DNA from: Lishizhenia tianjinensis
GTDB lineage: Bacteria; Bacteroidota; Bacteroidia; Flavobacteriales_D; Crocinitomicaceae
Direction: 5' to 3'
DNA: 64,000 bases
NCBI GenBank assembly: GCA_945902115.1
Contig: CAMDLY010000006.1
Location: forward strand, 1 to 64,000
Part shown: in pieces, positions 7,658 through 12,236 of the stretch
Layout of the letters: the number at the start of each line of letters is the position of its first letter
Position numbering within the stretch: position 1 is the first letter of the stretch
The notes under the pieces: generated by a model
What the model saw: the letters and a program-made list of their open reading frames with translations, nothing else
Told to the model about the DNA's origin: nothing
Database searches by the model: none
Translations under genes and position numbers: made by a program

Positions 7658-8095
7658 CTATCTACTGATATACGTCCACTCCTGTACATTGTTATTAATC
7701 GTACGACGTAACTTAAGACCCTTGCTTTTAAGTTCCCTTATCTCATAGTTAACAGCAAGAGATCCTTCCGATGATTCTGTCATAGATACTTGCCCTTGAC
7801 CTTCAAGGAATATCCATGTTCCGTGTGTGTGTGTGGATTGAATTTGACCTAAAGGATTTGTAACTGTGGATTCAGAATATGTACCATCTGATTCGATTGT
7901 AAGTTTAACCTCACTTTCTAATTCTACCTCACTGTTATTTAATGTTTTCTTTTCAAGAATCCATTCATTGGAAATTCTATCCATGCGAGTTAGTAAGGAA
8001 AAGCTCGGGCCTTCGGCGTATTTATTACATGAACCTAGCACGATAAGCGAAATTGATAATAATACTAAAACCTTCATTGTCTTATTTTTTTTCAA
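7658..8095 (-). CDS. Small lipoprotein, lipocalin-like
   Basis: Lipobox-like LIVLGSC signal; W(I/T)L...SDGTYSES...GTWIF pattern of lipocalin-like Bacteroidetes lipoproteins. Confidence 0.6.
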   Translation of the reverse strand: MKKNKTMKVLVLLSISLIVLGSCNKYAEGPSFSLLTRMDRISNEWILEKKTLNNSEVELESEVKLTIESDGTYSESTVTNPLGQIQSTHTHGTWIFLEGQGQVSMTESSEGSLAVNYEIRELKSKGLKLRRTINNNVQEWTYISR

Positions 8096-8144: not shown

Positions 8145-8177
8145 TTGCCACAGTCTAACCCAAATACATTATTTTTG
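8145..8177 (+). promoter_or_regulatory. Putative Bacteroidetes promoter upstream of the 8186 operon
   Basis: TTG (8145-8147) - N22 - TATTTTTG (8170-8177). The -7 box is very close to the ATG at 8186. Confidence 0.35.
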
Positions 8178-8185
8178 TGTTAACC

Positions 8186-9235
8186 ATGATTCAAGGTAAA
8201 AATAAAAATACGGCAGTAATTCCGTTGGCATGGCCAAATATGACAGCGCGATCTCCGGGCAGTTTTCTACATTTCTTAAGGAAAATTGGTTTAATGAGAA
8301 ATATGAATGTCTTGGTTGGACACGCAGCTTTGTTGGTGGTTGATAATGATTCATTTGTCTATGCTGATTTTGGTAGATATATAACCCCAAAAGGATATGG
8401 TAGAGCGAGAAGTGCCGATACCGATCCAAAGCTCTCTCTGTCTTCAAAACCTAAGTGGTCGGAGCAAGGTGAGTTGTTAAATTTAGAAGAAGTGTGTTCA
8501 GAATTAGAGGGAATTAATAGGGCAACTCACGGCGAAGATGCTTTGTTTGCTTCAATTATATATAATGTCGATATTGACAGGGTACTATTTTTTATTCGAG
8601 CATTACAACTCAAAGGCTATGCTGCCTATAGCGGTCTTAAAAAAAAGGAAACGAATTGTGCTCGATTTGTAACTACTGCTATACTCGCTGGACTAGATAA
8701 AAATTCTCCTATACACAAGAGATACTCCAATCCTTCGACTATTGCACCTTCTCCATTTTTTAATATTGTGGCTGGAAATATAGAGGGTAAATATATAGTT
8801 TGGAAAAACGGCGAAGGGAGCTGGCATAACGACAAACCGAGCGCTGCGCGGAAAGATATAATAGTTAAACTCTCCTATTCCTTCCGTCCTTCGAAAGCTA
8901 AATTGCTCCCCACTGATGTTAAAGAAGGCCAGCTTCGGCCCCCTGATCGCCCTTCTGAGCTTCCTGTTAATGCTTATTACCTTGGAGGTATTGGTGAGGG
9001 TGCTTGGCATGTATTGGAGAAATTTGATAATGAGCATCTCAAAAAAAAACGATATTATTTGAATGGAGAATTGGAATATGAAAATATATACCAAGTAGAC
9101 GCAGATTGGGTGAGAGAATTTGAAAATAATTCAGCTGAAATTACTTACGATAGTCACTTTTCTTGGATAACTTTGTTCCACAAGCAAAAGAATACCAAAA
9201 TGAGATTTTATGCCAGAAATAGCAGACATAGATAA
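8186..9235 (+). CDS. DUF6695-like protein, possible permuted papain/LRAT-like fold
   Basis: NTAVIPLAWPN and GHAALLVVDNDSFVYADFGRYITPKGYGRARSADTDP match my memory of DUF6695. GHA (His) precedes TNCARFV (Cys). Track start 8177 is GTG; the ATG at 8186 is preferred. Confidence 0.65.
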   Translation: MIQGKNKNTAVIPLAWPNMTARSPGSFLHFLRKIGLMRNMNVLVGHAALLVVDNDSFVYADFGRYITPKGYGRARSADTDPKLSLSSKPKWSEQGELLNLEEVCSELEGINRATHGEDALFASIIYNVDIDRVLFFIRALQLKGYAAYSGLKKKETNCARFVTTAILAGLDKNSPIHKRYSNPSTIAPSPFFNIVAGNIEGKYIVWKNGEGSWHNDKPSAARKDIIVKLSYSFRPSKAKLLPTDVKEGQLRPPDRPSELPVNAYYLGGIGEGAWHVLEKFDNEHLKKKRYYLNGELEYENIYQVDADWVREFENNSAEITYDSHFSWITLFHKQKNTKMRFYARNSRHR

Positions 9236-10622
9236 TAAAGAAAAGCTTCTTGAAGTTCTTGTTTCAGGTTGTGATGAACGCATATTTTTACGTCCCGATA
9301 CTCAGGCTAATAAGTACCACCTAAATCCTCTCAACTACGAAGGGTTATTTCATCGTGGTTCTTGCACCTGTGGAACCTTAACACCATCTGGCTATGAGGT
9401 AGCAACCAAATTTCTGCAGTCCTTTAATCCAAAAGAATACCAACAAATAATAAATACACAAACTGCCGCCCTCAAAAAGCTATTGGATGATGGTCAAAAT
9501 AACTTCGAGGTTTTTTATGGACCCAGTGGGAGCGACATGATGTATCTGCCTATTATTTTCCAGGCATTGTTATTCGGTAGAAAAGATATAATTAATATCG
9601 TTTCATGTCCAGAGGAATTGGGCTCGGGTTCAAAAGCGGCTGCTGAGGGATTATTCTATTCAGAGTGGAATCAGTTCGGTAGAAAAATCCCAATGGGTGA
9701 AGAGGTTGCAAAAAATATAAAATCAAAAGTTTTTTATTTGGCTGCGCGTGAAGATAGCGGACACATATCTAATAGAAGTCAGTCTATACGAAAAATTATT
9801 GCTGAACATCCTAATCAACCTATCATTGGTAATTTAGTTTTTGGGAGTAAATCTGGTATTAAGGACGATCTTGAAATAATAGACGAATTTAAGGAAGGTA
9901 TAATGTGGGTGGTCGATATGTGTCAGTTTCGAACCGACACTGTTCTGATACATTCGATGCTTGATAAGGGCGTGATGTTGATGGTGACAGGATCAAAATT
10001 TTATCAATCTCCTCCCTTTTGTGGAGCTTTATTAGTTCCAAAATCATGGACTGAAAAAATATATAATAATGATGCTTCTATCATTAAAGGCTACGAAGAA
10101 TTATTTTCGGCTTATGATTTTCCAGAATCTTGCATAGAAATAAGAAAGCAGTTGTCCGACGAGATAAATCTTGGTTTGAGGATGCGTTGGGAAATAGCCA
10201 TAGAAGAAATGAAGGCCTATTTGGCATTTCCTTCCATTGAATCCAATGCACTCATCAGAAGATGGAATCAAGTTGTCACCGGAAGGTTGGCACAAAGCGA
10301 TTATTTTCAGTTGATGCCTAATATGGAGCTCACTAATGACAGTATTGTATCTTTCATGGTATTGGCAAACGGCAAACCTTTAAATAATGCAGGACTTAAA
10401 AAGTTATTTGATTATTTAGTATTGAACGAACATGAAGGACTGAATGGATTTAAAAAAGTTTTTCTAGGACAACCTGTTCAATATGGGGAAAAGTCATTTA
10501 TTCGTTTTGCCATAGGATCTTATTCTATCAGAAGACAGCTCGCAAACAAACGTTTCCTACCCCAAAATGATATCAAATTGATTGAAATCATAGAAAATGC
10601 AGTAGATATATTATTCCCATGA
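9210..10622 (+). CDS. Fold-type I PLP-dependent enzyme (aminotransferase-like), unknown substrate
   Basis: FYGPSGSDMMYLP phosphate-cup motif, WVVDMCQFRTD (Asp contacting the pyridine N), and VTGSKFYQSPPFCGALLVPK (Schiff-base Lys). Overlaps the upstream CDS by 26 bp. Confidence 0.75.
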   Translation: MPEIADIDNKEKLLEVLVSGCDERIFLRPDTQANKYHLNPLNYEGLFHRGSCTCGTLTPSGYEVATKFLQSFNPKEYQQIINTQTAALKKLLDDGQNNFEVFYGPSGSDMMYLPIIFQALLFGRKDIINIVSCPEELGSGSKAAAEGLFYSEWNQFGRKIPMGEEVAKNIKSKVFYLAAREDSGHISNRSQSIRKIIAEHPNQPIIGNLVFGSKSGIKDDLEIIDEFKEGIMWVVDMCQFRTDTVLIHSMLDKGVMLMVTGSKFYQSPPFCGALLVPKSWTEKIYNNDASIIKGYEELFSAYDFPESCIEIRKQLSDEINLGLRMRWEIAIEEMKAYLAFPSIESNALIRRWNQVVTGRLAQSDYFQLMPNMELTNDSIVSFMVLANGKPLNNAGLKKLFDYLVLNEHEGLNGFKKVFLGQPVQYGEKSFIRFAIGSYSIRRQLANKRFLPQNDIKLIEIIENAVDILFP

Positions 10623-11848
10623 ACCTACTAAAAGAAGAGGCACTTTGGTTCATAAAAAATTTTTCAGGACAACTGAAAACGGAAGACACCGCTATTATTT
10701 GTCAATCTTGGAATCAACTAGATAAATATCTTGAGCATTTAAAAGAGGCATTTTCTTTTTATTCAGCAATTCATGCGATTGCCATTAAAACAAATCCTCA
10801 TCCTGAAGTACTTCGCTATATTGTGTCCAAAGGCTTTGGTCTAGAAGCAGCATCTATGGAAGAAGTTGAAATGGCAATAGAGGCAGGGATTTCAACTGAA
10901 AAACTAGTATTTGATTCACCAGTAAAAACGAGAGCTGAAATAAAAAAGTGCAACGAAAAATATGCAGGAATTAAATTAAATGTAAACTCCCTCGAGGAAT
11001 TAAATCGTATTCCTGATAATCCCAATTTTTCACTGGGCCTCCGAATTAATCCTATGGTAGATGCCGGATCTCCTGATCTTTATCATGTTTCTAGCGATGA
11101 GTCTAAGTTTGGAGAGCCTATTTCTAATGATCAAGCCATAATATCTGCTTGCCAGCAATTTCCAATCACACAATTGCACATCCACTCTGGCAGTGCTCTT
11201 GGTAATTTAGAGGTTGCAACGGCAGCAATTGCAGCAGTAGTAGCCTTAGCCAATCGGATAAATGTACAATTGGAATTAGCGAGTAAAGATTACCGCATAA
11301 AAAGTATAGATATAGGTGGAGGATTAAAGCCAGAAAAGTTAGGAACCGACTTATCTCAAATGAAGCAATACGCCAATTTACTCGTCAAGAATGTCCCTGA
11401 TTTAGTAAATTTTGAGCTTGTTACAGAATTTGGTCAATGGTGTCATTTTTATTGTGGCTTTGCTTTTTCCACAGTAGAATATGTCATGTTTCGCGGTAAA
11501 AAACAATTAGCATTTGTGCATCTTGGTGCAGACTATTTTATGCGTGACGCATACGTGAAGCCCCGCGGAATTGAATTTATTTGTTTAGACAAAGAAGGCA
11601 AGGTCAATGACGGAGAAAAACACACTACTGATATTGCAGGACCCTTGTGTTTTGCGGGAGATTATCTTGTTAAAGATATTCCATTGTCATCATTATCTGA
11701 AGGCGACATCTTATTAATGTTAGGGACGGGATCTAATACATATGGTTTGTGGTCTCGTCATTGTTCACGGACTATTCCAAAAGTTGTGGGTGTGGACTTT
11801 GAAAAACTTACTTTTACGCTACTTTCCGAACGAATTAAATTATATTGA
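10619..11848 (+). CDS. Fold-type III PLP-dependent decarboxylase-like protein (DapDC/ODC family)
   Basis: HAIAIKTNPHPEVL (PLP Lys), LHIHSGSALG, DIGGGL, AGPLCFAGD and GTGSNTYG. EPGR motif replaced by EFGQ. ATGA overlap with the upstream gene. Confidence 0.8.
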   Translation: MNLLKEEALWFIKNFSGQLKTEDTAIICQSWNQLDKYLEHLKEAFSFYSAIHAIAIKTNPHPEVLRYIVSKGFGLEAASMEEVEMAIEAGISTEKLVFDSPVKTRAEIKKCNEKYAGIKLNVNSLEELNRIPDNPNFSLGLRINPMVDAGSPDLYHVSSDESKFGEPISNDQAIISACQQFPITQLHIHSGSALGNLEVATAAIAAVVALANRINVQLELASKDYRIKSIDIGGGLKPEKLGTDLSQMKQYANLLVKNVPDLVNFELVTEFGQWCHFYCGFAFSTVEYVMFRGKKQLAFVHLGADYFMRDAYVKPRGIEFICLDKEGKVNDGEKHTTDIAGPLCFAGDYLVKDIPLSSLSEGDILLMLGTGSNTYGLWSRHCSRTIPKVVGVDFEKLTFTLLSERIKLY

Positions 11849-11849
11849 T

Positions 11850-12236
11850 ATGAAAATAAATCACCTTGTTCCCATTGTAATTATGAGTTTTTTGGTTGCT
11901 TGTGAGAGTCAATCCAAAGAAGATACTAAAGCGGGAAATTCTACTCCTAAAAAGACTGAAATCTCAGTGATTCCCAATAAAGTAATAACAGCTGAGGTGA
12001 CAGGTATGACCTGTGAAAAAGGCTGCGGTGGAATAATTCGCAAGAATTTAAAAGCAACAGGTGCTGTAGCCAAAGTAGAGTTTGATTTTGTCGAGGACGC
12101 GGAAAAACAAGTTTGTCGAATATTTTTTGACGATAAAAAGATTTCTGAAACAAAAATCAGCGAGATTGTAAATAGCGTCAATGAGGAACATTATGCTATG
12201 ACTCTTCTAAGATCAGAGGGACTCACGAAGAAGTAA
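11850..12236 (+). CDS. Lipoprotein with heavy-metal-associated (HMA) domain
   Basis: Signal peptide MKINHLVPIVIMSFLVAC; ITAEVTGMTCEKGCGGIIRKNL. True start is the ATG at 11850, not 11742. Confidence 0.75.
   Translation: MKINHLVPIVIMSFLVACESQSKEDTKAGNSTPKKTEISVIPNKVITAEVTGMTCEKGCGGIIRKNLKATGAVAKVEFDFVEDAEKQVCRIFFDDKKISETKISEIVNSVNEEHYAMTLLRSEGLTKK

What the first reader, a model, noticed from the sequence alone, without database searches (positions are those of the whole stretch)
8186..11848. Coupled three-gene cassette: DUF6695/permuted-papain-like protein, fold-I PLP enzyme and fold-III PLP decarboxylase-like enzyme
Seen in sequence: the first two genes overlap by 26 bp (9210-9235) and the second and third by 4 bp (ATGA, 10619-10622). 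A possible TTG-N22-TATTTTTG promoter precedes them. Two PLP enzymes of unrelated folds are translationally coupled to a protein with GHA...NCARFV order. Inference: this is a small-molecule or amino-acid-modifying pathway in which the fold-I enzyme and decarboxylase-like enzyme act on a shared substrate, possibly one released or conjugated by the papain-like protein. I do not recognise the cassette as a characterised pathway.
Basis: partly seen in the sequence, partly recalled or inferred. Interest (0 to 1): 0.72.

Follow-up and report, generated by a model that had tools for sequence, protein, structure and literature searches.

The report
Three-gene amino-acid-to-amine cassette, TseH-linked
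Three overlapping genes in a Flavobacteriales genome encode a previously unclassified vitamin-B6 enzyme, an amino-acid decarboxylase with an altered substrate pocket, and a papain-like protein known so far as a bacterial weapon; they travel together through many genomes and probably make, and then use, a small acidic amine.

Summary
In detail: three overlapping genes, g1 (8186-9235), g2 (9210-10622) and g3 (10619-11848). g1 is a TseH-like permuted NlpC/P60 protein with a DUF6695 C-domain. g2 is a confidently modelled fold-I PLP enzyme that matches no Pfam or NCBIfam family and no PDB sequence. g3 is a fold-III decarboxylase with an intact catalytic set and a non-DAP pocket. The cassette is conserved. 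Of 36 g2 clusters at 60% identity, 27 have g3 directly downstream and 29 have some decarboxylase; in two distant lineages g3 is replaced by an unrelated group II decarboxylase, once fused to g2. g1 joined once, in a Cryomorphaceae/Schleiferiaceae-like clade. Elsewhere in Bacteroidota, g1's relatives sit in a parallel cassette, [CysK-like PLP enzyme]-[TseH]-[second, dedicated PanD decarboxylase]. TseH here therefore looks like a metabolic partner of amino-acid decarboxylases, not a secreted toxin. Best reading: g2 makes or remodels an acidic amino acid, g3 decarboxylates it, and g1 does lipid-type acyl or amide chemistry on the amine. The amino-acid-to-amine logic is well supported; substrate, product and g1's reaction are inferred. 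No characterised pathway was found.

The parts
8186..9235 (+). g1: TseH-like permuted NlpC/P60 protein with DUF6695 C-terminal domain (349 aa); H46 codon 8321-8323, C158 codon 8657-8659
   Evidence: Pfam PF25218 2e-38 and PF20405 1e-9; AF2 pLDDT 88.3; Foldseek 6v98 TseH E 3.4e-6, the only PDB hit below 0.001; H46 and C158 invariant
9210..10622 (+). g2: fold-type-I PLP enzyme of an unnamed family (470 aa); Schiff-base lysine K263 (codon 9996-9998) in TGSKFY, D236 and Q239 in DxCQ, carboxylate-site Arg R432
   Evidence: No Pfam hit in the window protein or consistently in 55 homologs, no NCBIfam hit, no significant PDB sequence hit with a 55-row profile; AF2 pLDDT 91.2, pTM 0.90; Foldseek to class-V-type fold-I enzymes, TM about 0.55-0.6
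10619..11848 (+). g3: fold-type-III (alanine-racemase-fold) amino-acid decarboxylase (409 aa); K57 (codon 10787-10789), H189, E270 and C344 kept; F345 in place of the acidic residue after the catalytic Cys
   Evidence: PF02784 2e-28 and PF00278 3.6e-8; NCBIfam lysA 153 bits against a cut-off of 297.9; residue counts over 35 homologs
9210..9235 (+). 26-nt overlap of g1 and g2
10619..10622 (+). 4-nt ATGA overlap of g2 and g3
8145..8177 (+). possible Bacteroidota-type promoter TTG-N22-TATTTTTG, 8 nt before the g1 start
   Evidence: sequence; 27 loose matches in the window, so weak

Best explanation
The cassette is an amino-acid-to-amine pathway with a dedicated downstream step. g2, a fold-I PLP enzyme of a new family, makes or modifies an alpha-amino acid; g3 removes its alpha-carboxyl group to give a primary amine; g1, a permuted NlpC/P60 protein, then does acyl/amide chemistry on that amine, most likely transferring a lipid acyl group to it. 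g3's pocket suggests an amino acid whose side chain ends in a carboxylate-like group (carboxylate, sulfonate or phosphate) and carries no second amine. Likelihood by step (my estimates): g2 and g3 are active PLP enzymes, 0.85; they act in sequence in one pathway, 0.75; acidic-side-chain substrate, 0.45; g1 acts on the amine product, 0.5; g1 is an N-acyltransferase rather than a hydrolase, 0.35. Shown here: folds, conserved residues, gene order, decarboxylase swapping. Inferred: reactions, substrates, product.
For: g2-g3 adjacency: 27 of 36 clusters at 60% identity, 29 of 36 with any decarboxylase, across Flavobacteriales, Saprospiraceae, a Calditrichota MAG and a cyanobacterial MAG. Decarboxylase swap: group II decarboxylase adjacent in L101/L102, fused in L103, overlapping on a Rhizobium tumorigenes plasmid; the plasmid and L101 enzymes are 43% identical. 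Decarboxylase coupling of g1's family: 19 of 50 g1-like loci outside the g2-g3 cassette are CysK-TseH-PanD and 8 more are TseH-PanD; in 4 of 5 genomes tested this PanD is a second copy, and the catalytic residues stand in the five paralogs aligned. TseH tree: all decarboxylase-coupled forms fall in one part of the tree, support 92. g3: K57, H189, E270, C344 and R309 invariant, F345 invariant; in DAPDC the Arg at the R309 position binds the distal carboxylate and the acidic residue after the Cys binds the side-chain amine (PMC7857480). g1: relatives Tox-Act1, LRAT and YiiX act on lipid acyl groups, and V. cholerae TseH showed phospholipase activity in one assay (PMC12994826).
Against: No activity or substrate is known for any of the three. 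g2 occurs without g3 in about a third of the loci (for example L049-L060 next to a FemAB/GNAT-like gene, or after an NRPS gene on rhizobial plasmids), so g2's product is not always decarboxylated by a neighbour. In 24 of 54 g1-less loci the pair lies among glycan genes, so the amine may go to glycans, not lipids. Many TseH-like proteins sit beside neither decarboxylase type. g3 residue roles are transferred by alignment; g3 was not modelled.
Confidence: 0.6

Rival explanations
1. The amine made by g2-g3 is built into a cell-surface glycan, and g1 is an accessory that deacylates or amidates the conjugate.
For: 24 of 54 g1-less loci carry two or more glycan-gene families (UDP-Glc dehydrogenase, NeuB/NeuA, sulfotransferase, flippase, AsnB-like), against 0 of 26 g1 loci (Fisher p 1e-5; loci are related, so the p-value is too small). 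A TupA-like ATP-grasp gene follows in L062.
Against: In the window clade no glycan gene lies nearby, and flanks differ between sites. About half of the g1-less loci also lack glycan genes.
Confidence: 0.25
2. g1 is a secreted antibacterial (T6SS-type) effector and the PLP genes are unrelated passengers.
For: g1 matches TseH, a T6SS effector, by Pfam and by fold.
Against: No VipB/TssC match in the window genome (one family only, Bacteroidota TssC may diverge). No immunity-like neighbour. g1, g2 and g3 stay together with parallel divergence in 24 complete cassettes (r 0.94). Relatives sit in metabolic operons with PanD.
Confidence: 0.07
3. g3 is the genome's diaminopimelate decarboxylase (lysine synthesis) and g2 an associated aminotransferase.
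For: The window genome has no lysA match above the curated cut-off; g3 is its best lysA hit (152.6 bits).
Against: g3 is far below the cut-off of 297.9; the acidic residue that binds the side-chain amine is Phe in 35 of 35 homologs. Congeners mostly lack both lysA and g3 (3 of 37 genomes have each, and not the same ones), while G038 has a true lysA and g3.
Confidence: 0.06
4. The pair makes a polyamine or diamine (aminotransferase plus decarboxylase, like the diaminobutyrate/1,3-diaminopropane route).
For: The group II decarboxylase partner's best NCBIfam hit is L-2,4-diaminobutyrate decarboxylase (126.6 bits, cut-off 900).
Against: g2 belongs to no aminotransferase family; g3 has lost the acidic residue that holds a side-chain amine.
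Confidence: 0.1

Closest known systems
TseH / Tox-Act1 permuted NlpC/P60 proteins (PF25218, PF20405)
   Same: g1 has the same domain, permuted H-then-C order and fold
   Different: g1 has a metabolic operon context, no T6SS core hit in the genome and no immunity gene; activity untested
Diaminopimelate decarboxylase and its relatives (LysA, BtrK, SbnH, FslC/FigC)
   Same: Both Pfam domains, catalytic Lys/His/Glu/Cys and the Arg for a distal carboxylate
   Different: Acidic residue after the catalytic Cys is Phe in all 35; the GAY Tyr is Asn in 34 of 35; an invariant W378 and H381; below the lysA cut-off
Class-V-type fold-I PLP enzymes (AGT, AEP transaminase, Cys desulfurase)
   Same: Fold (TM about 0.55-0.6), PLP Asp followed by Gln, Schiff-base Lys, C-terminal Arg
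   Different: 11-15% identity; no Pfam membership; own motifs (EELGSG, SKSGI, TGSKFYQxPPFCG)
CapA-CapB sulfonolipid (capnine) pathway
   Same: A PLP-based route from an acidic amino acid toward a lipid; a distant g2 homolog lies convergently next to true CapA in four genomes of one genus
   Different: g2 is not CapA or an AONS-type CapB; the window cassette has no CapA
CysK-like - TseH - PanD operons of other Bacteroidota (found here)
   Same: Same make-up: PLP enzyme, TseH-DUF6695, decarboxylase
   Different: Fold-II PLP enzyme and pyruvoyl decarboxylase fill the two enzyme slots; gene order differs (TseH in the middle)

Membership tests
TseH-like permuted NlpC/P60 (PF25218) | Profile match above the gathering score | tested here: met
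   132.3 bits against 27
TseH-like permuted NlpC/P60 (PF25218) | His before Cys catalytic residues | tested here: met
   H46 and C158 invariant in 17
T6SS effector | T6SS core genes in the genome | tested here: not met
   No PF05943 hit in G000; E. coli control rings; one family only
T6SS effector | Secretion and toxicity | not testable with these tools
   Needs experiment
Diaminopimelate decarboxylase (LysA) | Score above the TIGR01048 cut-off | tested here: not met
   153.2 against 297.9 bits
Diaminopimelate decarboxylase (LysA) | Acidic residue after the catalytic Cys that binds the side-chain amine | tested here: not met
   Phe in 35 of 35; role from PMC7857480
Fold-III amino-acid decarboxylase | Catalytic Lys, His, Glu and Cys, Gly-rich loop | tested here: met
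   K57, H189, E270, C344, G233-235 invariant
Fold-I PLP enzyme | Fold | tested here: met
   AF2 and Foldseek E about 1e-14
Fold-I PLP enzyme | PLP lysine, Asp and substrate-carboxylate Arg | tested here: met
   K263, D236, R432 invariant in 55; roles assigned by motif, not by structure superposition
Aminotransferase class V / Cys desulfurase | Pfam membership | tested here: not met
   No Pfam hit for the window protein; stray weak hits only among 55 homologs
Capnine (sulfonolipid) pathway | CapA in the cassette | tested here: not met
   No CapA or CysK-like gene next to the window cassette; g2 has no NCBIfam hit

The most novel reading that the evidence does not exclude
TseH/DUF6695 proteins of Bacteroidota are not effectors but lipid-linked amine N-acyltransferases. 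They partner with interchangeable enzyme pairs (new fold-I g2 plus fold-III g3, or CysK-like plus a dedicated PanD paralog) that make a small acidic amine such as taurine or beta-alanine, giving an undescribed class of acidic N-acyl-amine membrane lipids. g2 would found a new PLP enzyme family.
Probability: 0.2. Interest if true: 0.85.

Novelty: new variant of a known kind. Interest (0 to 1): 0.62.

Why it matters
g2 defines an enzyme family that no searched family library covers, and it sits in a repeated genetic logic whose decarboxylase slot has been filled by unrelated enzymes. The same logic, filled with other enzymes again, surrounds TseH-like proteins, a family described so far as antibacterial effectors. 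That points to a metabolic origin or second career of a toxin family and gives a short route to finding its natural substrate. If the product is a lipid, it could help explain the unidentified aminolipids often reported in descriptions of Bacteroidota species (my general knowledge).

Tried and rejected
Promoter as evidence of an operon: rejected as uninformative (27 loose matches; sigma-70 scan at the shuffle level). g3 as a LysA substitute: rejected. g1 as effector: rejected on context. Phage or viral cargo: no match in phages or viral contigs. Recent foreign DNA by composition: GC of the cassette (0.374) equals the window's (0.375). Known NRPS product on Sinorhizobium plasmids: no paper found. 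Literature on DUF6695: one paper only. Taurine and N-acyltaurine literature: nothing usable.

Full report
Observation. The gene upstream runs the other way (7658-8095), so g1 starts the transcription unit. A gene for a small lipoprotein with a GMTCEKGC motif starts 2 nt after the g3 stop, but it is shared only with the nearest relative L006. The promoter-like match is present but common in the window.

What the proteins are. g1 matches TseH (PF25218, 2e-38) and the DUF6695 C-terminal domain. Its model (pLDDT 88.3) has one significant PDB match, V. cholerae TseH 6v98. H46 and C158, in permuted order, are invariant in 17 homologs. g3 has both fold-III decarboxylase domains, and its profile finds DAPDC, BtrK, ornithine and citryl-ornithine decarboxylases in the PDB. 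g2 has no Pfam or NCBIfam hit; 55 homologs give only stray weak hits, and a 55-row profile finds nothing significant in the PDB by sequence. Its model is confident (pLDDT 91.2, pTM 0.90) and Foldseek places it among fold-I PLP enzymes nearest alanine-glyoxylate aminotransferase, AEP transaminase and cysteine desulfurase, at 11-15% identity. K263 (TGSKFY), D236, Q239 and R432 are invariant in 55.

g3's pocket. Lys, His, Glu and Cys of catalysis are all kept. In DAPDC an Arg of the specificity helix binds the substrate's distal carboxylate, and the acidic residue after the catalytic Cys binds the side-chain amine (PMC7857480). By alignment g3 keeps that Arg (R309, 35 of 35) and has Phe instead of the acid (F345, 35 of 35); the GAY Tyr is Asn in 34 of 35. 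This suggests an amino acid with an acidic side-chain end and no second amine. It is an inference from alignment.

Conservation. A scan of 84,980 species genomes gave 80 loci. g2 and g3 are neighbours in most of them. With distant homologs added, 65 of 97 g2 genes are followed directly by g3; at 60% identity 27 of 36 clusters have g3 and 29 have g3 or another decarboxylase. 42 of 59 pairs overlap; g1-g2 gaps are 22 nt or less in all 27. g2-g3 distances correlate at r 0.88 and g1-g2 at 0.94, which shows co-inheritance but does not separate it from shared ancestry. On the g2 tree the g1 label needs two changes: one gain at the base of a 28-row clade and one loss (L024); no g1 is left in the L024 genome. 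The cassette is accessory: 3 of 37 genomes of the genus have it and 15 of 396 across the phylum have g2. Its flanks change from site to site.

Swapped partners. In L101 and L102 the gene after a g2-like gene encodes a group II PLP decarboxylase (PF00282), and in L103 the two are one open frame. On a Rhizobium tumorigenes plasmid a g2-like gene overlaps a group II decarboxylase by one base, 43% identical to that of L101. So a decarboxylase beside g2 is the recurring feature, its fold is not. Other distant g2-like genes lie after an NRPS gene on Sinorhizobium plasmids, near asnB and DAHP synthase on a Rhizobium plasmid, or convergent with true CapA cysteate synthase in four genomes of one genus. 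In a clade of small marine genomes a FemAB/GNAT-like gene follows g2 where context is visible, and in those genomes no g3 was found elsewhere.

g1's relatives. Outside the g2-g3 cassette, 50 g1-like loci from Bacteroidota were read: 19 are [CysK/CBS-like]-[TseH]-[PanD] and 8 more TseH-[PanD], mostly with gaps of a few bases or overlaps (two loci are duplicates and many come from one genus). In 4 of 5 genomes checked the genome has another, better-scoring PanD, so the TseH-linked one is a dedicated paralog; its K9-H11, G24-S25, R54, T57-Y58 and N72 are intact (residue roles from general knowledge of PanD). On the TseH tree the g2-g3-linked, PanD-linked and CysK-PanD-linked forms fall on one side of a branch with support 92, with nine unlinked rows among them. 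The remaining forms follow polyprenyl synthetase, an Lrp-type regulator or an NRDE gene (these names are read from the sequences by eye).

How it most likely works. Two cassettes with non-homologous enzymes share one plan: a PLP enzyme that can build or remodel an amino acid, an amino-acid decarboxylase, and TseH. The simplest common function for TseH is to act on the amine. Its superfamily (LRAT, YiiX, Tox-Act1) handles lipid acyl groups, and TseH itself showed phospholipase activity in a liposome assay (PMC12994826). Transfer of an acyl group to the amine is therefore my first choice, hydrolysis the second. Both decarboxylases keep an Arg that would hold an acidic side chain, which fits aspartate, cysteine sulfinate, cysteate, phosphoserine or similar. 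The CapA-like partners hint at cysteate and taurine, but the CysK-like enzyme of the PanD cassette is below the CapA cut-off (278 against 600 bits), so I hold that lightly.

Rivals. A glycan destination is real for part of the family (24 of 54 g1-less loci, 0 of 26 g1 loci). A T6SS effector role for g1 is unlikely (and the operon context). g3 as LysA is unlikely: most congeners lack both genes, and G038 has both.

Limits. No biochemical evidence exists. Gene calls in related loci are mechanical ORF calls. Many loci come from MAGs, and the cyanobacterial and Calditrichota cases rest on single contigs. TssC was sought with one family only. L030's missing g3 may be a contig-end artefact.

Noticed in passing
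L105, L106, L129, L130, L133, L164-L192: Bacteroidota carry a second, dedicated panD paralog in an operon with a TseH/DUF6695 gene, often preceded by a CysK/CBS-like gene.
   Followed up: partly
L149 8953-10488, L154 8953-10488: Distant g2 homologs on Rhizobium and Sinorhizobium accessory plasmids; in L154 the gene overlaps an NRPS gene, with SagB-type dehydrogenase and phosphopantetheinyl transferase nearby; in L149 asnB and DAHP synthase are nearby.
   Followed up: partly
L094-L100: Members of one bacterial family (f17) have a 690-aa g2-like protein with an N-terminal extension of about 170-200 aa and no Pfam match; in four of them CapA cysteate synthase lies convergently next door.
   Followed up: partly
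G000 and congeners: Only 3 of 37 genomes of the window's genus have a lysA above the curated cut-off, so most may be lysine auxotrophs or use another enzyme.
   Followed up: no
window 11851-12236: Small predicted lipoprotein with a heavy-metal-binding-like GMTCEKGC motif directly after g3, overlapped by an alpha/beta hydrolase gene; shared with L006 only.
   Followed up: no
L049-L060, L067: In a clade of small marine genomes g2 is followed by a FemAB/GNAT-like gene instead of g3.
   Followed up: partly
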